Source of the DNA: Quinella sp. 1Q7
GTDB taxonomy: Bacteria > Bacillota > Negativicutes > Selenomonadales > Selenomonadaceae
DNA: 35,956 bases
Direction of reading: 5' to 3'
Assembly (NCBI GenBank): GCA_015206805.1
Contig: JADEZP010000016.1
Span: forward strand, 1-35,956
In this document: piece after piece, positions 14,518 through 33,527 of the stretch
Layout of the letters: every line of letters begins with the position of its first letter
How positions within the stretch are numbered: the first letter of the stretch is position 1
The notes under the pieces: generated by a model
Database searches by the model: none
What the model was told of the DNA's origin: nothing
What the model saw: only the letters and a program-made list of their open reading frames with translations
Program-made: the position numbers and the translations under genes

Positions 14518-15183
14518 TCACAGGTAGTCGTAGAGTATTGAAGCCGCCGTTATCAGTATCGCGTCGAACAGAATCATCACGCCGAGCAAGCCGCCTTCGA
14601 CTGCCGCGCCCGTGAATGCGAGCTCCGTCAAACTTATCGCGGGCAGGAATATCGGCAACGTGACGGGGAACAGCAATATCGGGAAGAGCCCGCCCTTGAC
14701 CGTCGCCGAAGTCGTCAAAGCCGCCGTCAACGTGCCCGCCGCCGATAAGCCCGTCACGCCCGCAAGCAACGTTCCCGCGAGCAAAAGTCCGTCCGCGACC
14801 GCAACATCGAACAGCACCAAAAATATCGGCGCGATAAAAATTGTCAGCGCGATCAACGATACGAACACTCCGCACATTTTGCCGAATAAGATTGCTTGCG
14901 CGTCGGCGTAAAGTTTGAGTGTCGGCAACGTTCCCGCCTGCGCCTCGTCGTCGAAAGTTCCTGCCAATCCCGCGCCCGCCGCGAAGAATATCACGACCCA
15001 AAGCATTGCCGCCAAAATTTTCGGCTCAATCGGCGCGCCGCCCGTCGACAAGCTCAAAGCCGCAACCGCCGTCAGCGCGAACATCATCATTGCTGCGAAG
15101 GATGCCCGTCGTCGCAAGCCCGATAAAAAATCTTTGCGCAGTATCGCGGCGATTTGCTCACAGCGGCAGGTGAATGGCTTCAT
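14518..15183 (-). CDS. ccmB: Heme exporter membrane subunit CcmB
   Basis: A 221-residue CcmB-type ABC membrane subunit that pairs with CcmA to drive release of holo-CcmE. The N-terminus from the ATG at 15183 (GGAGG 12 bp upstream) reads MKPFTCRCEQIAAILRKDFL, with the RKDFLSGLRRR coupling region before helix 1. Then come FFAAGAGLAGTFDDEAQAGTL, a typical CcmB block, and about six hydrophobic segments ending IPFLP-like LPIFLPAISL and ITAASILYDYL. A longer in-frame ORF upstream overlaps ccmA and is not CcmB-like. The start overlaps the ccmA 3' end by 26 bp. Since ccmA is frameshifted, CcmB may lack its ATPase partner. Confidence 0.88.
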   Translation of the reverse strand: MKPFTCRCEQIAAILRKDFLSGLRRRASFAAMMMFALTAVAALSLSTGGAPIEPKILAAMLWVVIFFAAGAGLAGTFDDEAQAGTLPTLKLYADAQAILFGKMCGVFVSLIALTIFIAPIFLVLFDVAVADGLLLAGTLLAGVTGLSAAGTLTAALTTSATVKGGLFPILLFPVTLPIFLPAISLTELAFTGAAVEGGLLGVMILFDAILITAASILYDYL

Positions 15184-15750
15184 CGCAAAGTTCAACCTCC
15201 GTAGCGTCGTTCGTCGCGAGCAGAATAATTTTGTCGGACTTGGCGGCGTCAATGGCGGCGGAAAATTTTTTGCGACCGTCGTCGTCGAGATTGGCGGTCG
15301 GCTCATCGAGCAACCAAATTTCGGCGTCGACGGCAAGCACAATCGCGAACTTGAGGCGTTGGCGCATACCCGTCGAAAAATTTTCCGTGCGCACGTTCAA
15401 AGCCGCAACATCAAGTCCGACGCGCGAGGCGAGCTCCGAAATTTTTTCGGCGGACAAATTTTTGCCGCGCAGTCGTGCGAAGAATCTCAAGTTCTCCGTC
15501 GCGGTCAAGGCGTCGTAAATTTTCATGTCGGGCGATACGGCGGCGACTGAAAAATTTTCGGGCAAGGTGACACTGCCGCTGTCGGGACGAATAATTTTTC
15601 CCGCAAGCTTGAGCAACGTCGACTTGCCCGCGCCGTTATGCCCGTCACGCCGATTATCCGTCCGCCGCGCAGATTCAACGTCACGTGACTAAAAATTTCG
15701 CGTCGCCCGAAACTCAAGCTCACGTCGTCGAAAAAAATTTCGTCCGTCAC
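15158..15750 (-). pseudogene. ccmA: Heme exporter ATPase CcmA with a 1-bp P-loop frameshift
   Basis: The GTG at 15750 overlaps the crp/fnr stop (GTGA), with AAGGA upstream, and starts MTDEIFFDDVSLSFGRREIF. At 15641-15643 one base is missing: the frame reads VTGITARASRRC, whereas shifting by one gives HNGAGKSTLLKLAG, the Walker A motif, and runs to the end of the gene. Downstream parts are intact: FSTGMRQRLKFAIVLAVDAE (signature), IWLLDEPTANLDD (Walker B) and LLATNDATEVELCDEAIHL. With the base restored, the protein would have 197 residues, the normal CcmA length. As written, the ATPase cannot be made except by frameshifting. A real mutation and a sequencing error in the GGG/CCC run are both possible. 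Confidence 0.88.
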
Positions 15751-16412
15751 GAAAGTTTGTCCTTGTTGAGGCGCATCCAATGATCGCCGACTTCGACAAG
15801 CCCGTCCGCCTGCATGAGCGAAATTTCCCGCGTGAGCGACGAACGGTTACACTCAAGCTCCTTGGCAAGCTGAACACGCCCCGGAACTTTGACGAGCTCC
15901 GATTGCTGACGGCGTTCGCGTTGCAAAAGGTACAGGATGATTCGTTCGCGCAGATTTTTTTGCGACAGCAGCTCGACCTTCTGCATCATGAGGAGGTTTT
16001 TGCGGCTGAAGGTCTCCAGAAAATTTTTCATAACGATGCCGTGCATTCTGCCGAGTTTGGGACCGGCAATTAGCAGTGAGCGATACGGCACCCACATTAT
16101 CACGGCGTCGGTCGTGAGCTGGACGCTGACTGCGATTAAATCTTCGCCGAGGATTGCCGAGGTCGTCCCGAACATTGCGCCGCTTTCCAAGCTGTGCCCG
16201 ACGGTTTCGTTGCCGAGTCTGTCGAGCGACAGAATTTGCGCTTCTCCGCTGACAATCACGCCGATTTTTGCGTTGGGCATGAACGCTTCAAGCACGCGTT
16301 CGCCGCGCGGATATTCCCTGACGGTCGTGCCCGTGAATTTCATGAACAATTCGATTTCGTTCGGCAACAGGTCTTTAAAGAGCGGGACGCCCTGCAAATC
16401 TTCGCCGGACAT
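15747..16412 (-). CDS. Crp/Fnr-family transcriptional regulator
   Basis: A 221-residue regulator with an N-terminal cyclic-nucleotide-binding-type beta roll and a C-terminal winged helix. The ATG at 16412 follows GGGAGGTG by 9 bp (MSGEDLQGVPLFKDLLPNEI). The effector domain has REYPRGERVLEAF, IGVIVSGEAQIL and SLESGAMFGTTSAI. The DNA-binding domain has NLRERIILYLLQRERRQ, then GRVQLAKELECNRSSLTREI as helix-turn-helix. Of the FNR-type cysteines there is no N-terminal cluster, so an Fe-S oxygen sensor is unlikely; a small-molecule or heme-linked signal is possible. It heads the ccm genes, overlapping ccmA by 4 bp, and probably regulates them. Confidence 0.9.
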   Translation of the reverse strand: MSGEDLQGVPLFKDLLPNEIELFMKFTGTTVREYPRGERVLEAFMPNAKIGVIVSGEAQILSLDRLGNETVGHSLESGAMFGTTSAILGEDLIAVSVQLTTDAVIMWVPYRSLLIAGPKLGRMHGIVMKNFLETFSRKNLLMMQKVELLSQKNLRERIILYLLQRERRQQSELVKVPGRVQLAKELECNRSSLTREISLMQADGLVEVGDHWMRLNKDKLS

Positions 16413-16554: not shown

Positions 16555-17121
16555 ATGATAATTTTGGCATCGGGCTCGCCGCGCAGACATGAGCTGTTGC
16601 GGAAGTTGTGCACGAATTTTTTGGTGGAAGTCAGCGACGCGGCGGAAGTTCAATCTGCCGAAAATCCTGCGGCTTTGGCGGTTGAGAACGCCGTTCGTAA
16701 AGCTCAAGCCGTCGCCGACAAACATCCCGACGCGGTAGTAATCGGCGCGGATACAATCGTCGTGCTTGACGGGAAAATTTTCGGCAAACCCGACGGAGCG
16801 TGCGGCGCAGTCGACATGTTGAGTAAGCTTGCGGGCAGGCGACACGAAGTCATCACGGGCTTGGCGTTGATTGTCGGCGGCAAAGTTTTCACGGCGTCGG
16901 AGGTCACGGAAGTTTTCTTCGGCGCAATGACGATTGAGGACATCTGCGAATACGTTGCCACGGGTGAACCGCTCGACAAGTCGGGCTCGTATGCACTGCA
17001 GGGCGGCGCGACTAAATTTATCGAAAAAATTCACGGCGACTGGTCAAACGTCGTCGGACTGCCCGTCTACCGCTTGAGACTTTTGGCGCAGTCGGCGGGC
17101 GTCGACTTCAACGCAACCTAA
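16555..17121 (+). CDS. maf: Maf-family nucleotide pyrophosphatase
   Basis: A 188-residue Maf/YhdE family protein, a cytosolic house-cleaning pyrophosphatase acting on non-canonical or selected nucleoside triphosphates. The ATG at 16555 follows GGAGGTAGCGCA. Signature motifs are ILASGSPRRHELL at the N-terminus, VIGADTIVVLDGKIFGKP in the middle, LAGRRHEVITGLAL, and YVATGEPLDKSGSYALQGG with IEKIHGDWSNVVGLPVYRL near the end. These are complete and typical of the dTTP/UTP branch. The gene is divergent from the crp/fnr regulator. Its stop overlaps the stop of the convergent TIGR04076-like gene by 4 bp. Confidence 0.95.
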   Translation: MIILASGSPRRHELLRKLCTNFLVEVSDAAEVQSAENPAALAVENAVRKAQAVADKHPDAVVIGADTIVVLDGKIFGKPDGACGAVDMLSKLAGRRHEVITGLALIVGGKVFTASEVTEVFFGAMTIEDICEYVATGEPLDKSGSYALQGGATKFIEKIHGDWSNVVGLPVYRLRLLAQSAGVDFNAT

Positions 17122-17432
17122 TCGGCGTCGTCGTCGAGTGTCTCGATCAAAAAGCTCACGGGGCGGAAACCGTCGTTGCAACTCAACAGCGCGGACTTCG
17201 GATTTTTCATCCAGCCGCCGTAAAAATTTTCCGCTCCGTGCGACAAAGCCATAACGAACGGCGAAATCGTTTCCCACGCGCTAAGGCAGAATCCGTCGGG
17301 GCGCGACCAACCGTTTGCAATGAAAACCGCACCCTCGACCATGTCGCAGGCGTTGTCAATCGGATTTTCGTAGCGGGCAATCAAATCGTCGTAACGCGCC
17401 TTGCGAATCACGGTGATTTTAATTTTTTTCAC
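17118..17432 (-). CDS. TIGR04076-family small protein
   Basis: A 104-residue protein with the TIGR04076 pattern: KKIKITVIRKARYDDLIARY at the N-terminus, a cysteine (DNACDMVEGAVF), WSRPDGFCLSAWETISPFVMA, NFYGGWMK and a final SCNDGFRPVSFLIETL. The start is a GTG at 17432, with GGAGGAG 12 bp upstream. Three cysteines at conserved-looking places (about residues 29, 49 and 84) suggest a metal or redox role, but no function is established for the family that I know of. Monocistronic, with its own promoter, divergent from the 91-residue gene at 17580. Confidence 0.8.
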   Translation of the reverse strand: MKKIKITVIRKARYDDLIARYENPIDNACDMVEGAVFIANGWSRPDGFCLSAWETISPFVMALSHGAENFYGGWMKNPKSALLSCNDGFRPVSFLIETLDDDAD

Positions 17433-17513: not shown

Positions 17514-17542
17514 TTGTCGCTTGCGGGCGAAGTTGCTATAAT
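17514..17542 (+). promoter_or_regulatory. Promoter of the 91-residue gene and NYN/LOTUS gene
   Basis: TTGTCG (17514-17519), a 17-bp spacer and a perfect TATAAT (17537-17542), 38 bp before the ATG at 17580. Confidence 0.65.
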
Positions 17543-17579
17543 CGCCGCGTGCCCCGAATTTTTGAAAGGAGTTTATATC

Positions 17580-17855
17580 ATGGCAAAACCCGGTAAAGTG
17601 TTTATTTTTTTTAACTGTGACGCCGACAAGAGCGAAGGCTCAATGAACGTTTTTTACAATCGCACGGTCTACAAAGACACGAAAACTTCGCGCAAGAATC
17701 TGTGGAAGAAAGTCAAAGAGGAATACGGCGCGGAACGCATTCAAATTGCGTCCGACAAGCTCGCCGACGTCGAACTTGCCATAACCGAAGGCGATCCCGT
17801 TTCCGCAAGTGACTTTATGCAGTTCGGAGCAATTCGTGCCTTTGAGTGTTATTGA
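17580..17855 (+). CDS. Small protein of unknown function upstream of the NYN/LOTUS gene
   Basis: A 91-residue protein I do not recognise. The ATG at 17580 has a strong SD (GAAAGGAG, 8 bp away). The sequence starts with a beta strand (KVFIFFNCDADKSEGSMNVF), then a basic helix (KTSRKNLWKKVKEEYG), IQIASDKLADVELAITEGDP and an aromatic C-terminal strand (FGAIRAFECY). It has no signal peptide or membrane helix. A dedicated promoter precedes it, and the NYN/LOTUS gene follows 21 bp later with no terminator between, so the two form an operon. A role as a partner or regulator of the NYN protein is inference from position only. Confidence 0.75.
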   Translation: MAKPGKVFIFFNCDADKSEGSMNVFYNRTVYKDTKTSRKNLWKKVKEEYGAERIQIASDKLADVELAITEGDPVSASDFMQFGAIRAFECY

Positions 17856-17876
17856 CCGCCTTTGAGGTTTTCCGCA

Positions 17877-20084
17877 ATGGCTGCAAAAAAAATCGCGCTC
17901 TTCATTGATGCAGACAACATCTCCCCAAAATACGGCAAGCAAATCGTCGCGGCAGTGGAAAGTCGCGGCGAAGTTTTTATCCGCCGAATCTACGGCAACT
18001 GGGAAAAAAATTCTCTGCACGGTTGGAACGACTGCATTCTGAATTTCTCACTGCGCGCCGTCCAACAGCCTGACTTCGTGACCGGCAAGAACGCGACCGA
18101 TATGTCGTTGACGATTGACGCAATGGACGTTCTCCACGAGGGCAAGGCGGAAATTTTCGCGCTGGTGTCAAATGACAGCGACTTTACGCCGCTGGTTATC
18201 CGTCTGCGCGAAGGCGGCATGACGATTATCGGCTTGGGCAACGCCAACGCCTCCAACGCCTTCCGCGCCGCCTGCAGTGAATTCATCGACTTGGACGCGC
18301 CCGAAGTTCAAAACCCCGTCCATAAGCCCAAAACTCCCGCGACACGTTCCGCCGCGCAGGATAATTCGTCGCCCGTGCAAATGTCGCTGTTCGCCGAAAA
18401 TCCCGCGCCCGAAGTCAAACCTGCACACGTCGAGCCCGAACGTCCCGCAAGCTCAAAGGTCGTTTCAATCACGCGGGCGACTGCCGCTCAAAACGACGAC
18501 AGGTTCCGCGCGATTCACGAAATCTTGCACGAGACCGCACGCATTCACGCCGACAGGAAAGGTTTCGTCGCAATGTGTTGGGCGGGGCAAAGCCTTCACA
18601 ATCAACTTGGTATCAGCGTGAAGGATTTCGGCTACGGCTCGCTGTACAAATTCGTCGCCGACTTCCCCAACCTGTACGAAATGATTCACCGTGACAACGG
18701 CAATAATTTTTGTTACCGTTGCCGCACGAAGTTGCGACCCGCGCCCGTCAAAAATCCGCCCGTCATCAGTGTTCCCGTCGAAGATCGACTGCCGAAATTT
18801 CATGACGCCCTGCGCGAGGCGACGACCACTTGCGCCGACGAAGAGGGCTTCGCGAATCTGTGCACCGTCGGCGCGTTTCTCAATCCGAAGGAAATCGGCT
18901 TCGGCGTCAAAAGTCTGGGCTACGGCACGTTGCAAAAATTTATCGTCGCCTTCCCCGACCGCTACGAAATTCGCCGCGTCGACGACAAAATTTTTATTCG
19001 TTGCCTCACGGACGATGAACGCGCTCAAAAACTTCACGACATCCTGCGCGAAACTGCGGCGGCTCATTCGGACGATACGGGCTTCACGGACTTAACCTGC
19101 GCGGGAAATTTCAGCGGCCGGCAACTGCTTGAGCTCATGAATAAATTTCCCGACCGCTACGAAATTCGCCGCGTCGACAATAAAATTTTTTACCGTTGCA
19201 TTTCCGACGCCGAACGCGTCCAAAATCTCCACGACCTTTTGCGCGAAACTGCGGCGGCTAATGCCGATAACGCGGGCTTCACGGATTTGAGTTGCGTGGA
19301 AATTTTCGGCGTCGAACAACTGCTTGAGTTCGTCAGCAAATTTCCCGACCGCTACGAAATTCGCCGCGTCGACGACAAAATTTTTTATCGTTGCATTTCC
19401 GACGCCGAACACGCTCAAAAGCTCCACGACACCTTGCGCGAGACTGCGGCGACTAATGCCGACGCCGAATGCGTTCAAAAGTTCAACGACACCTTGCGTG
19501 AAACTGCGGCGACTAATGCCGACGATGAACGCGTCCAAAAGCTCAACGACACCTTGCGCGAAACTGCGGCGACTAATGCCGACGATAAACGCTTCCAAAA
19601 GCTCCACGACATCTTGCGCGAAACTGCGGCGGCGCGTGCCGACAATTCGGGCTTCACGGATTTAAGTTACGTCGGCAATTCGCTCGGCAAGCAGAAAATC
19701 GGATTCGGCATTCGCAGTCTGGGCTACGGCACGCTACAAAAATTCGTCGCCGACTTCCCCGACCGTTACGAACTGCGCAAGACCGACAAAAAAGTTTTTT
19801 ACCGTTGCCGCGCCAATGAATCGACTGCGCCCGTCGACAATCGACTTAATCAACTGCACGACATCTTGCGCGAGGCGGCGACCGCTCAACACGACGACGA
19901 CGGCTTTTCACTGCTCAATCACGCCGGTCAACAAATCAAACGTAAACATCTGAACTTCAGCATTCGGGATTTCGGCTACGGTCAGCTTCATGAATTCGTA
20001 AGTGCCTTCCCCGACCGCTACGAAGTTGCTCACGATACAAACGGCGGCAAATTCCGCTACCGTTGCAAGCCGTCGCAAAAATAG
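17877..20084 (+). CDS. NYN-domain (LabA-like) protein with an expanded LOTUS/OST-HTH array
   Basis: A 735-residue protein; the ATG at 17877 follows TGAGG by 9 bp. Residues 1-140 are a NYN/LabA-like (PIN-fold) domain: IALFIDADNIS (D11, D13), ATDMSLTIDAMD (D75, D81) and VSNDSDFTPL (D100, D102) supply the acidic metal-binding set, so ribonuclease activity is plausible. After a polar linker come LOTUS/OST-HTH-like modules starting near residues 210, 307, 385, 450, 575 and 659, each with LHDILRETAA, a GF(T)DL turn, FGYGTLQKF and FPDRYEIRR...FYRC. Modules three and four lack the middle GIGFGVKSLGYG part. Between 515 and 574 only the first helix is repeated three times. LOTUS domains bind RNA or G-quadruplexes and usually occur singly beside NYN. 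The protein probably targets RNA; the biological target is unknown. Confidence 0.85.
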   Translation: MAAKKIALFIDADNISPKYGKQIVAAVESRGEVFIRRIYGNWEKNSLHGWNDCILNFSLRAVQQPDFVTGKNATDMSLTIDAMDVLHEGKAEIFALVSNDSDFTPLVIRLREGGMTIIGLGNANASNAFRAACSEFIDLDAPEVQNPVHKPKTPATRSAAQDNSSPVQMSLFAENPAPEVKPAHVEPERPASSKVVSITRATAAQNDDRFRAIHEILHETARIHADRKGFVAMCWAGQSLHNQLGISVKDFGYGSLYKFVADFPNLYEMIHRDNGNNFCYRCRTKLRPAPVKNPPVISVPVEDRLPKFHDALREATTTCADEEGFANLCTVGAFLNPKEIGFGVKSLGYGTLQKFIVAFPDRYEIRRVDDKIFIRCLTDDERAQKLHDILRETAAAHSDDTGFTDLTCAGNFSGRQLLELMNKFPDRYEIRRVDNKIFYRCISDAERVQNLHDLLRETAAANADNAGFTDLSCVEIFGVEQLLEFVSKFPDRYEIRRVDDKIFYRCISDAEHAQKLHDTLRETAATNADAECVQKFNDTLRETAATNADDERVQKLNDTLRETAATNADDKRFQKLHDILRETAAARADNSGFTDLSYVGNSLGKQKIGFGIRSLGYGTLQKFVADFPDRYELRKTDKKVFYRCRANESTAPVDNRLNQLHDILREAATAQHDDDGFSLLNHAGQQIKRKHLNFSIRDFGYGQLHEFVSAFPDRYEVAHDTNGGKFRYRCKPSQK
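19419..19658 (+). repeat. 60-bp in-frame tandem repeat inside the NYN/LOTUS gene
   Basis: Four adjoining 60-bp units begin at 19419, 19479, 19539 and 19599. Each encodes 20 residues of the form KLNDTLRETAATNADDERVQ. The fourth runs into a complete LOTUS module. Units are near-identical in DNA, so the expansion looks recent and length may vary between strains. Confidence 0.9.
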
Positions 20085-20097
20085 TTTCGTCGCTTTA

Positions 20098-20126
20098 TGG
20101 ACAAACGGCGCGGCGTTGTTTATAAT
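20098..20126 (+). promoter_or_regulatory. Promoter of the PTS permease leader
   Basis: TGGACA (20098-20103), a 17-bp spacer starting AACGGCGCGGCG and a perfect TATAAT (20121-20126). The spacer motif GGCGCGGC also occurs in the purF and nitroreductase promoters. Confidence 0.65.
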
Positions 20127-29097: not shown

Positions 29098-29157
29098 TTG
29101 AGGAGGTCGAGACAAAACTTTTCGCAACGCATCACAAAAAATTTAGGAGGTCATTGT

Positions 29158-31326
29158 ATGAGCACTGCCACAGACAACAATGCGTCTGCCGAGCTGGATT
29201 TGCAAGCACTTATCCGCCGCGCAGAGGCGCAAACCGATTTTCCCGAAGTCCCGCTGGACGAATTCACGCCGCCTACTTACGACGCGTGGAAGGAAGCTTG
29301 TATCGCCCTGCTCAAAGGCGCACCGTTCGAGAAAAAACTTTTCACGAAAACTTACGAAGGCATCACCTTCAGCCCGATGTATTTCCACGGAGACACCGAG
29401 CCGATTCAGCCGAAAACTTATCCCGGCATGGGCGATTACGTTCGCGGCATAACTCCAAACGGTTATGTCAATGCGCCGTGGGGAATTGCTCAAGCTTGCG
29501 ACGACACCTTGCCCGAAGAGAACAACGAATTGCTCAAGCACGAGATTGACAAGGGCTCCACGATTTACAACGTCAAAGTCGACTGCGCGACCCGCAAAGC
29601 TCGCGACGCCCGCGAATGCGAACACATCGGCAAACACGGCTGCTCCGTTACGACGCTCGGCGACGCTGAAACGCTCCTTAAAGGTCTCAAGCTCGACCAA
29701 TATCCGCTGTACGTTTACGCGGGCGAATCCGCATTGCCGTTACTTGCGCTGATTGTCGCGGCTGTCAAAAATCAGGGCGGCGACGTTGCCAAACTCAAAG
29801 GCATTATCGGCGCGAATCCCATTGCCGAATACGTCGCAAACGGCACGCTCAATCAGTCGCTGGACAAACTCTACGACGAGGCGGCGGCTGTCGCGAAGTG
29901 GGCTGTCGACAACGCTCCGAACGTCCGCACGATTTTTGTCAAAAGCAATGTCTTCAGCAACGGCGGCGCGAACGACGTTCAGGAAGTCGCTTACACCGTC
30001 GCAACGGGCGTCGCTTATCTGCGGGCACTGCTTGAGCGCGGCTTGACGATTGAACAGGCGGCAAGTCAGATTATGTTCGGCTTTTCAATGGGCGCGAATT
30101 TCTTCATGCAGATTGCAAAGCTCCGCGCAGTCCGTCCGATTTGGGCGCAGATTGTCAAGGCGTTCGGCGGCTCGGAAGACGCGCAGAAAATGCACATTCA
30201 CGGTCGCCCCGCGAAGTTCTTCAAGACCGTTTACGACCCGTATGTCAACATGCTTCGCGACACGACGGAACTTTTCAGCGGCGTGGTCGGCGGCGTCGAC
30301 AGCTTCGAGAACTCCACGTTCGATGAGCCCGTCCGCAAGGGCGACGAATTCAGCCGCCGCATTGCCCGCAACATGCAAATTATCCTGCAAGAAGAATTCG
30401 GGCTTCTGCAACCGATTGACCCCGCCGGCGGCAGTTGGGCTGTCGAAACGCTCACCAAGCAAATTCGCGAAAAAATTTGGGCTGAATTCCAAGCCGTCGA
30501 ATCCAAGGGCGGTATCGTCGCCGCGCTCAAGGAAGGTTATCCGCAGGAACAAATCGCCGCAGTTCTTGCCGCACGTTTCAAGGCTGCCGAGACGCGCAAA
30601 GATCGCATTGTCGGCAACAACATGTACCCGAACATGACCGAGGAACGCATTGACGCCCGCCCCGAATCTCAAGCCGAAAACATGAAGGCGCGCAAATCCG
30701 CGATTGAGGCTTATCTTGCCAACGTCGACGCGAAAGCCGCACTTGCCGCCATTAAAGCCGACGACGTTGAGTCCGTCATTGCGGCGGCTCAATCGGGCGC
30801 GACGATTGCCGAACTTCGCAAGGCATTGGGCACGGCTGAAGTCGACGAAATTAAATCGATTGAGGCTCACCGCTGGAGCGAACGTTTCGAGGCTCTGCGC
30901 GAGACTACGGAAAAATTCAAGGCTTCCACGGGCGACAACGTCAAAATCTTCCTTGCGAACATGGGACCGATTCCGCAACATAAAGCCCGCGCAGATTTCA
31001 CCACGGGATTTTTGCAGGTCGGCGCGTTCCAAGTGCTGGGCAACAACGGCTTCCCGACGGTCGACGAGGCGGCTGCTGCTGCTAAAGAGTCGGGCGCGGA
31101 TGCCGTCGTAATTTGCTCAACCGACGCGACGTATCCCGAAATTGTCCCCGCACTTGCGCCGAAACTTCACGAGGCATTGCCGAACGCGACGGTTTACCTT
31201 GCGGGCACGGCTCCCGCCGAACTCGTCGAAACTTACAAGCAGGCGGGCATTGACGACTACATCAACGTTCGCGCGAATTGCTACAAAGTTATTCAAGCTC
31301 TTCAACAGAAAAAGGGGATGGCATAA
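29158..31326 (+). CDS. mutA: Methylmalonyl-CoA mutase small (beta) subunit
   Basis: A 722-residue small subunit of heterodimeric adenosylcobalamin-dependent methylmalonyl-CoA mutase, which interconverts succinyl-CoA and R-methylmalonyl-CoA. The ATG at 29158 follows AGGAGGTCATTGT. It has the mutase barrel ([65 protein letters not shown]). The C-terminal flavodoxin-like domain lacks the DxHxxG cobalamin-ligand motif, as expected for the non-catalytic subunit. Its stop overlaps the mutB start. Together with lactate transport this supports propionate formation through the succinate route. Confidence 0.95.
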
Positions 31327-33527
31327 TGGCACAGTACACTAACCCGGACTTCACGCAGATTGGTCTGAGCGACGCCCCGGCTTCTGACGCGGCGGAGTGG
31401 AAGGCTAAATTTGAGCAGGCGGCTAAAGCGGATTACGACAAGCTCATCTACAAGACGATGGAACATGTCCCCGTTAAGCCGCTGTACACTCACGACGAAT
31501 ACGCGCACATGAATCATTTGGACTTCGTAAGCGGAATTCCGCCGTTCCTGCGCGGACCGTATGCGACAATGTACGTTTTCCGCCCGTGGACTGTCCGTCA
31601 ATATGCGGGCTTTTCGACGGCTGAAGAGTCGAACGCGTTCTATCGCCGCAACCTCGCCGCAGGGCAAAAAGGTCTGTCAATCGCCTTCGACCTGCCGACA
31701 CATCGCGGCTACGACGCCGACAATCCGCGCGTCTTCGGCGACGTTGGTAAAGCCGGCGTCAGCGTCTGTTCAATGCTCGACATGAATATTTTGTTCAGCG
31801 GCATTCCGCTTGACCAAATGTCAGTTTCAATGACGATGAACGGCGCGGTGCTCCCGATTCTGGCGTTCTTCATTCAGAGCGGCATTGAACAGGGCGTCGA
31901 TAAATCGATTCTCAACGGCACGATTCAAAACGACATCCTCAAAGAATTCATGGTGCGCAACACCTACATTTACCCGCCCGAAATGTCAATGCGCATAATC
32001 GGCGACATCTTTGAGTATACGACGAAATACATGCCGAAGTTCAATTCGATTTCAATCAGCGGCTATCACATGCAGGAGGCAGGCGCGCCTGCCGATATTG
32101 AGCTCGGTTACACGCTCGCGGACGGTCTCGAATATATCCGCACGGGCATTAACGCCGGCTTGAAGGTCGACGCCTTTGCAAAGCGGTTGAGCTTCTTCTG
32201 GGCTATCGGCAAGAATTATTTTATGGAAGTCGCCAAAATGCGTGCGGCTCGCGTCCTGTGGGCGAAAATCGTCAAGCAAATGGGCGGCACCGACGCAAAG
32301 TCAATGGCACTGCGCACGCACTGCCAAACGTCGGGCTGGTCACTCACCGCGCAAGATCCGTTCAACAACATTTCGCGCACGGTTATGGAGGCAATGGGCG
32401 CGGCACTCGGTCATACGCAGTCGCTCCATACAAACGCGCTCGACGAGGCAATCGCCCTGCCGACCGACTTCAGCGCACGTATCGCACGCAACACGCAACT
32501 TTACATCCAAGACGAAACGTCCGTTTGCAAAATCATCGACCCGTGGGGCGGCTCCTACTACGTCGAGGCTCTCACGAACGAAATTATCCGCCGCGCATGG
32601 GCGCACATTCAGGAGATTGAACAGCTCGGCGGCATGGCTAAGGCTATCGCGACGGGCTTGCCGAAAATGCGCATTGAAGAGGCTGCGGCACGTCGTCAGG
32701 CGCGTATCGACTCCAACAACGAAACGATTGTCGGCTTGAACAAATTCCGTCTCGACAAGGAAGACCCGCTCGAAATTCTTGCCGTCGACAACACCGCCGT
32801 CCGCAACGCGCAAGTCGAACGTCTCAACAAACTCCGCGCCGAACGTAACGAAGACGACGTCCGCGCCGCCCTTGAAGCCATCACGAAAGCTGCCGAATCC
32901 CGCGACAACGGCAACCTGCTTGAATGCGCGGTTGAGGCGGCTCGCGTCCGTTGCTCACTCGGCGAAATTTCCGACGCCGTCGAAAAAGTTTGCGGCAGAT
33001 ACGTCGCGACGATTCATCCGATTTCAGGCGTTTACTCAAAAGAATTCGGCGATGAAAGTAAACTTGACGAAGCTCGTGCAATGGCTGACGAATTTGAGAA
33101 GCTCAAGGGGCGCAGACCGAGAATTGCTATCGTTAAGCTCGGGCAGGATGGTCATTCGCGTGGTCAGTCGGTTCTTGCAACTTCGTTTGCTGATCTCGGA
33201 TGGGATGTTGATATTGGACCGTTATTCCAAACTCCGCAAGAAGCTGCGCGTGACGCTGTCGATAACGACGTGCACATTGTCGGATTCAGCTCGCTTGCCG
33301 CAGGTCACAACACGCTGTTGCCCGAACTCGTCGACGAACTCAAGAAAATTGGCGGCGAATCTGTGTTAGTAGCCGTGGGGGGTGTAATTCCCGTTCAAGA
33401 CTACGACTTCCTTTACAAGCACGGTGCAGTTGCGATTTTCGCGCCCGGCACAGTTATCCCCGAAGCGGCAAAGAAATTGCTTAACATTTTGATTGAACGC
33501 GCCAAGGAAGAGGAAGACGCCGGCTGA
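31326..33527 (+). CDS. mutB: Methylmalonyl-CoA mutase large (alpha) subunit
   Basis: A 733-residue catalytic subunit. The ATG shares one base with the mutA stop (TAATG), with AAAGGGG upstream. The N-terminal substrate barrel has [56 protein letters not shown] and [20 protein letters not shown]. The C-terminal B12-binding domain carries [11 protein letters not shown], where D608 and H610 form the DxHxxG motif that supplies the lower cobalt ligand, then [17 protein letters not shown] and [14 protein letters not shown]. Length is normal. Codons switch to more T-ending forms between about 33110 and 33240, over the start of the B12 domain. No meaB chaperone or epimerase gene follows; a strong terminator does. 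Confidence 0.97.

What the first reader, a model, noticed from the sequence alone, without database searches (positions are those of the whole stretch)
17514..20084. Two-gene operon: unknown 91-residue protein plus NYN nuclease-like protein with six LOTUS-like modules
NYN/LabA-like proteins usually carry one C-terminal OST-HTH/LOTUS domain or none. Here a NYN domain with all its acidic residues is followed by six LOTUS-like modules and a helix-only expansion, and it is coupled to an unrecognised small protein under one promoter. A multivalent RNA-binding array fused to a likely ribonuclease could be an RNA-decay, RNA-silencing or defence device. This is the best candidate for an undescribed system in the window.
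Basis: partly seen in the sequence, partly recalled or inferred. Interest (0 to 1): 0.7.

Follow-up and report, generated by a model that had tools for sequence, protein, structure and literature searches.

The report
Rumen bacterium's MARF1-like nuclease gene pair
A rumen bacterium carries a probable RNA-cutting enzyme with a long, fast-changing string of RNA-binding modules, made next to the same small unknown protein; a similar layout is known from the animal protein MARF1, so this could be a simple bacterial model of targeted RNA decay.

Summary
Window 17580-17855 encodes a 91-aa protein and 17877-20084 a 735-aa protein: a NYN nuclease domain with its acidic residues, a disordered linker, four full OST-HTH/LOTUS modules, two shortened ones, and three extra copies of a 20-aa helix.

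The organism is Quinella or a close relative. In its genus, 43 of 66 genomes carry this NYN gene; all 43 have it directly behind the small gene, although flanking genes differ. Module number varies from one to six among relatives, while NYN and small protein change slowly. In samples outside the genus, OST-HTH frames carry one module, rarely two, and the NYN gene was not linked to the small gene in 13 loci. The small protein, confidently seen only in Selenomonadaceae, has no Pfam or PDB assignment.

Most likely this is an RNA-decay nuclease targeted by a multivalent LOTUS array, with the small protein as partner. It works like MARF1 but is not one: no RRMs. No good evidence for defence or toxin-antitoxin. 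A new variant of the known NYN+OST-HTH family; activity, RNA binding and partnership are inferred.

The parts
17514..17542 (+). sigma-70-like promoter of the pair (TTGTCG-17-TATAAT, TG before -10)
   Evidence: consensus match only
17580..17855 (+). small 91-aa protein; family confidently seen only in Selenomonadaceae in the samples searched; alpha/beta prediction, no Pfam assignment or PDB fold match
17877..20084 (+). NYN-LOTUS protein, 735 aa
17877..18302 (+). NYN (DUF88/LK-nuclease type) domain, residues 1-142; D11, D75, D100, D102
   Evidence: Foldseek to 2qip and MARF1 NYN 5yaa/6fdl
18303..18497 (+). linker, residues 143-207, predicted disordered (block means 33-37 over 151-200)
18498..18731 (+). 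LOTUS module 1 (full)
18774..19010 (+). LOTUS module 2 (full)
19011..19205 (+). LOTUS module 3 (65 aa, shortened)
19206..19400 (+). LOTUS module 4 (65 aa, shortened; 71% identical to module 3)
19401..19580 (+). three 20-aa copies of LOTUS helix 1 (part of a 60-bp tandem array)
   Evidence: predicted as helices
19581..19817 (+). LOTUS module 5 (full)
19833..20072 (+). LOTUS module 6 (full)
20098..20126 (+). promoter-like site before the following PTS gene, so the pair may be its own two-gene operon
   Evidence: consensus match only

Best explanation
The pair is a small RNA-decay module. The 735-aa protein is a metal-dependent NYN (PIN-like) endoribonuclease. Its C-terminal LOTUS array docks on structured or G-rich RNA with many weak contacts and brings the RNA to the NYN domain through a flexible linker. 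The small protein, made first from the same mRNA, is a dedicated partner (adaptor or co-activator) of the NYN domain or of the RNA-protein complex. The array is lengthened, shortened and swapped by recombination between tandem copies, so affinity or target choice drifts quickly between species while enzyme and partner stay fixed. SHOWN here: domain identity, conserved acidic residues, NYN fold match by prediction, fixed pairing in the genus, rapid change in module number, slow evolution of NYN and small protein. INFERRED: RNase activity, RNA binding, shared mRNA, physical partnership, change of targets.
For: NYN and OST-HTH by Pfam, in 36 and 34 of 36 homologues. The predicted model's only PDB matches below E 0.001 are six chains: 2qip (bacterial DUF88, E 3.2e-6) and the MARF1 NYN domains 5yaa and 6fdl (E 2.2e-5 to 3.8e-4); bacterial OST-HTH 2kpm appears at rank 22 (E 0.058, probability 0.99), among unrelated matches of similar E. 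D11, D100, D102 in 36 of 36. Pair: NYN gene in 43 of 66 genus genomes, all 43 directly behind the small gene, same contig and strand, with -1 to 28 nt between the two matches; no strong NYN match without it. It keeps together while flanks change: of 42 named loci with the pair, 24 have the PTS gene downstream, 15 have no PTS match, 3 contigs end inside the NYN gene. dN/dS against relative L102: 0.08 (small), 0.09 (NYN), 0.19 and 0.23 (modules 5 and 6 against their nearest L102 modules). Array turnover: complete genes have 1 (17), 2 (9), 3 (5), 4 (3), 5 (5), 6 (1) modules of 40; supported branches of the NYN tree force at least 6 changes of the label 'multiple modules'; modules of one protein are often sisters. 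By analogy: human MARF1 NYN is an endoribonuclease (PMC6294520, passages) and MARF1 binds target mRNAs through tandem LOTUS domains (PMC7279887, passages).
Against: No activity or binding was measured. 15 of 66 genus genomes keep the small gene without any NYN match at E <= 1e-28, so the small protein also works alone or in another role. 17 of 40 complete genes have only one module, so a long array is not essential. The small protein has no recognisable nucleic-acid-binding fold. The model of modules 3 and 4 is poor in parts and the LOTUS fold matches are weak. Human MARF1 deletions show that several of its LOTUS domains are dispensable in the reporter tested (PMC7279887, passages). Some recent module copies show little constraint (L096 modules 3-4, dN/dS 0.98). 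One five-module protein (L100) lacks D75.
Confidence: 0.5

Rival explanations
1. The enzyme is an ordinary NYN+OST-HTH RNase that needs only one LOTUS module; the array is a tolerated by-product of tandem-repeat slippage and recombination, with no gain in binding.
For: 17 of 40 complete genes have one module. Very recent copies exist: two modules of L108 are identical even at silent sites, and L096 modules 3-4 have dN/dS 0.98. Other repeats also grow in this region (helix copies in the window; octapeptide repeats in L213; a repetitive linker in L124).
Against: Older modules look constrained (dN/dS 0.19 and 0.23 for m5 and m6 against L102, 0.29 for m3-m4; all window-L102 module pairs 0.14-0.44, one undefined); frames stay open; multiple modules recur on many branches; no genome outside the genus in the class sample (300) or the phylum sample (398) shows more than two Pfam-level modules in one frame.
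Confidence: 0.25
2. The gene order is an accident of operon building: the NYN gene landed behind the small gene and borrows its promoter; the two proteins do not work together.
For: The small gene looks like the older resident: it occurs across the family without NYN beside it, and 15 of 66 genus genomes have it without the NYN gene.
Against: The pair stays together in at least two different gene neighbourhoods and at 63-69% NYN identity between lineages, and no genus genome searched has a strong NYN match elsewhere.
Confidence: 0.2
3. Toxin-antitoxin or anti-phage device with the small protein as antitoxin of the nuclease.
For: Small gene first, nuclease second, short spacing; no strong NYN match without the small gene in the genus. 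Homologous NYN genes lie on some plasmids (362 of 72,556 records) and a few phage records (6 of 50,697), and the NYN part matches a phage protein family of unknown function (phrog_37744, E 1.3e-45).
Against: PADLOC hits are weak: E 0.031 (Cas2e, small protein) and 7.3e-4 (type IV Cas5, over residues 428-481 of the LOTUS repeats); window neighbours with a Pfam match are metabolic or housekeeping; one copy per genome with one origin in the genus; the small gene is spread through the family and often kept without this nuclease; related NYN proteins occur without it.
Confidence: 0.05

Closest known systems
Bacterial LK-nuclease (DUF88/NYN) + OST-HTH proteins (Anantharaman, Zhang, Aravind 2010, PMC2848206; passages seen)
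   Same: N-terminal NYN-type nuclease domain, C-terminal OST-HTH, predicted RNase and RNA binder
   Different: [quoted passage not shown] here up to six modules, and a fixed partner gene (itself not a known RNA-processing gene)
Mammalian MARF1 / Limkain-b1 (PMC6294520 and PMC7279887; passages seen)
   Same: NYN nuclease plus a tandem LOTUS array (eight in human); NYN folds match in prediction
   Different: no RRM domains found here; the array follows a disordered linker; the decapping partners are eukaryotic; array length varies between close species; unrelated small partner
Drosophila MARF1 (PMC6168497, title and abstract start in a search listing; also described in PMC7279887)
   Same: six tandem LOTUS domains that act on mRNA
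   Different: lacks a NYN domain; recruits CCR4-NOT

Membership tests
bacterial NYN (DUF88/LK-nuclease) + OST-HTH family | N-terminal NYN domain over the family cut-off | tested here: met
   Pfam NYN 121.1 bits, cut-off 24.2; fold match to 2qip
bacterial NYN (DUF88/LK-nuclease) + OST-HTH family | conserved acidic active-site residues | tested here: met
   D11, D100, D102 36 of 36; D75 35 of 36. That these are the catalytic ones is recalled from the superfamily, not tested
bacterial NYN (DUF88/LK-nuclease) + OST-HTH family | C-terminal OST-HTH | tested here: met
   OST-HTH 111.5 bits, cut-off 23.8, four stretches; weak fold match to 2kpm
bacterial NYN (DUF88/LK-nuclease) + OST-HTH family | one or two OST-HTH per protein (stated as the usual state, not as a criterion) | tested here: not met
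   four full plus two short modules; hence a variant
bacterial NYN (DUF88/LK-nuclease) + OST-HTH family | RNase activity | not testable with these tools
   -
MARF1 | NYN domain of the MARF1 fold | tested here: met
   Foldseek 5yaa_C E 2.2e-5, TM-score by target length 0.76
MARF1 | tandem LOTUS array | tested here: met
MARF1 | RRM domains beside the NYN domain | tested here: not met
   no RRM listed in Pfam scans
MARF1 | C-terminal decapping-factor motif | not tested
   eukaryotic partners; not applicable in bacteria
type II toxin-antitoxin | antitoxin gene tied to its toxin gene | tested here: not met
   small gene without the NYN gene in 15 of 66 genus genomes; in the 34 other-genus loci fetched no NYN-profile match was printed
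known anti-phage defence | match to a known defence protein or a defence-gene neighbourhood | tested here: not met
   only weak PADLOC hits; 20 window ORFs scanned with Pfam show none; flanks of relatives were not scanned for defence genes

The most novel reading that the evidence does not exclude
A bacterial counterpart of MARF1: a nuclease whose LOTUS array is an evolvable RNA-addressing code, rebuilt species by species, with the small protein acting in trans where MARF1 uses its RRMs. In related genera the small protein often carries a lysine/alanine-rich, histone-H1-like tail (14 of 34 copies fetched) that was not seen in this genus (0 of 26), so the array may have taken over a nucleic-acid contact that the small protein once made itself.
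Probability: 0.15. Interest if true: 0.8.

Novelty: new variant of a known kind. Interest (0 to 1): 0.5.

Why it matters
LOTUS domains are best known from animal germ-line RNA granules, and why MARF1 carries eight of them is not settled. Here is a bacterial nuclease family in which nature has varied the module number from one to six on a slowly changing enzyme, with a fixed small partner. That allows direct tests of what LOTUS valency does for RNA affinity and choice, and gives a lead on the function of bacterial NYN+OST-HTH proteins.

Tried and rejected
Considered and dropped: (1) Known domain in the small protein: Pfam, NCBIfam, PADLOC, PHROGs and PDB sequence searches gave only weak hits, best E 0.013; a Pfam scan of 51 homologues gave three families with one member each, best Ku_N at 4.4e-4; Foldseek had nothing below E 0.8; profile comparison with the NYN-LOTUS alignment found no relation. 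(2) Viral origin of the small gene: no relative in viral contigs by close-relative patterns. (3) Pfam GNAT, DUF434 and YPEB_N hits and the type IV Cas5 hit on the LOTUS region: taken as repeat-driven; GNAT is in 2 of 36 homologues, DUF434 in 1. (4) Small-protein relatives beyond the family: 1 of 398 phylum genomes outside the family has a weak partial match (G707, E 6.3e-5, inside a 2148-aa frame), taken as chance and not followed. Literature: six library searches on NYN, LOTUS or OST-HTH and two on NYN in defence or rumen listed no bacterial NYN protein with three or more LOTUS modules in the titles and abstract starts shown; full texts were not read for this. The Quinella genome paper (PMC9585023) has no 'NYN' in its main text. 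Limits: dN/dS values are single-pair counts near saturation; the module tree has few columns; most genomes are draft MAGs, so absences can be assembly gaps; the named loci are the best 80 of 106 found.

Full report
WHAT IS THERE. The two genes are real and at the stated place. A 91-aa gene (17580-17855) with a good-looking ribosome-binding site is followed after 21 nt by a 735-aa gene (17877-20084). A promoter-like site lies at 17514-17542, and the next gene, a PTS sugar transporter, has its own promoter-like site, so the pair may be a separate two-gene operon; these are consensus matches only. The large protein has a NYN domain (Pfam 7.1e-35) and OST-HTH/LOTUS modules (1.7e-32, four stretches). 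Two further modules are shortened to 65 residues, and three 20-residue copies of the first LOTUS helix stand before module 5.

STRUCTURE. AlphaFold2 with 36 homologues gives a confident NYN domain (block means 86-97, one block 68), a disordered linker (143-207) and fairly well predicted modules 1, 2, 5 and 6 (mostly 71-96, dips to 58-65); modules 3 and 4 are mixed (39-95), perhaps partly an effect of aligning repeats (mean pLDDT 77.7, pTM 0.35). The six PDB matches below E 0.001 are 2qip, the bacterial DUF88 structure named in the 2010 OST-HTH paper, and chains of the NYN domains of mouse and human MARF1 (5yaa, 6fdl). 2kpm, the bacterial OST-HTH structure of the same paper, is at rank 22, E 0.058, among unrelated matches of similar E. 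The acidic residues D11, D100 and D102 are present in 36 of 36 homologues and D75 in 35 of 36. The small protein is predicted as strand, three helices, strand, with a poorly modelled conserved loop (mean pLDDT 83.4) and has no PDB match below E 0.8.

WHERE IT OCCURS. The best 80 of 106 named relatives of the small gene are titled as Selenomonadaceae or higher groups that hold them; among those with the pair are Quinella sp. 1Q5 and 2Q5, and many isolate names point to sheep, goat, deer or buffalo guts. So the window is from Quinella or a close relative. The small protein was found in 84 of 151 sampled genomes of its family, 65 of 300 of its class, all 65 in its family, and 7 of 398 of its phylum, of which 6 are in the family and one is a weak partial match. 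In the genus, 58 of 66 genomes have the small gene and 43 of 66 have the NYN gene at E 1e-28 or better; all 43 NYN genes lie directly behind the small gene on the same contig and strand, 15 genomes have the small gene alone, 8 have neither. Weaker NYN hits (E about 2e-8 and above) elsewhere were taken as other NYN proteins and not counted. Of 80 named loci plus the window, 43 carry the pair. Outside the genus, 13 of 13 fetched Selenomonadaceae NYN loci have one LOTUS module and no small gene in the 1.5 kb or less held on each side; 13 of 17 strong matches were fetched, and one not fetched (G033) has two modules. Three of these genomes also have a small gene, on another contig (G001, G002) or about 11 kb away (G026).

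THE PAIR HOLDS WHILE THE NEIGHBOURS CHANGE. Of 42 named loci with the pair, 24 have the PTS gene next (91-94% identical), 15 have no PTS match (in six of these the next called ORF is a shared SIMPL-like protein, named from recall), and 3 contigs end inside the NYN gene (neighbours were called greedily by ORF length). One genome of the window's own group, L109, has small gene and PTS gene but no NYN gene between them, which looks like a loss. These facts speak for a functional unit, but shared descent alone explains part of the linkage.

THE ARRAY CHANGES FAST. In 40 complete genes the module counts are 1 (17), 2 (9), 3 (5), 4 (3), 5 (5) and 6 (1); three genes cut by contig ends were left out. 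The genus forms one side of a supported branch in the NYN tree; supported branches force at least six changes of the label 'multiple modules'. Sister species differ: L097 has one module and L093 two. In the module tree, copies from one protein are often each other's nearest kin (L096 modules 2-5, L108 modules 2-3, L116 modules 1-2, window modules 3-4), which means repeated recent duplication (few columns, many unresolved forks). L108 modules 2 and 3 are identical even at silent sites, which may be a very recent copy or an assembly effect. Compared with L102, dN/dS is 0.08 for the small protein, 0.09 for NYN, 0.19 and 0.23 for modules 5 and 6; other module pairs are less constrained, up to 0.98 for the youngest L096 copies. 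Outside the genus, OST-HTH occurs in 35 of about 275 class genomes (50 of 300 less the 15 of the genus) and in 34 of 397 other phylum genomes, with at most two in one frame; divergent modules could have been missed by Pfam, as two were in the window itself.

HOW IT PROBABLY WORKS. Human MARF1 is a NYN endoribonuclease (PMC6294520, passages) that binds target mRNAs through its tandem LOTUS domains, of which only some are essential, while an RRM helps the nuclease (PMC7279887, passages). The simplest reading of the bacterial protein is the same division of labour: the array finds RNA, the NYN domain cuts it. [quoted passage not shown] 2020, seen only in a reference list). The small protein would be the fixed partner. 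In other genera its copies often have a basic tail (14 of 34 fetched, several from one genome, against 0 of 26 in this genus), which hints at nucleic-acid contact. None of these functional steps is shown.

VERDICT. A real, unusual variant of a known bacterial family, with a genus-specific partner gene and a quickly evolving LOTUS array. Not a MARF1 (no RRMs), not a toxin-antitoxin pair by the test made, no good sign of defence. The library searches listed in Tried and rejected showed no earlier description of bacterial NYN proteins with three or more LOTUS modules, but only listings and passages were seen.

Noticed in passing
L056, L065, L067, L070, L071, L076, L078, L080, L082-L087: Copies of the small protein in other Selenomonadaceae genera carry lysine/alanine/threonine-rich, histone-H1-like N-terminal tails (14 of 34 fetched against 0 of 26 in the window's genus); one genome has six copies of the gene (G053).
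   Followed up: partly
L121-L126, NYN-LOTUS gene: A second lineage keeps one LOTUS module but has a linker of roughly 230-340 residues, in L124 built of near-identical repeats.
   Followed up: no
L213:1-1235, minus strand: The nearest relative by NYN sequence (89%) has an octapeptide repeat array right after LOTUS module 2, up to the contig end.
   Followed up: no
L100 / L215 (G763): The NYN domain of a five-module protein lacks about 22 residues including D75; either a real loss of the active site or an assembly error.
   Followed up: no
window 15158-15780, minus strand: An ABC-transporter ATPase-like sequence (named by eye) next to a CcmB gene appears spread over two overlapping frames.
   Followed up: no
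window 17118-17432, minus strand: A 104-aa ORF upstream of the pair has no Pfam match.
   Followed up: no
window 29098-33527: Two overlapping ORFs with methylmalonyl-CoA mutase domains, probably its two subunits.
   Followed up: no
G000:C77:18462-18674: A second, weak NYN match in the same genome (E 3.1e-5), probably another NYN family.
   Followed up: no
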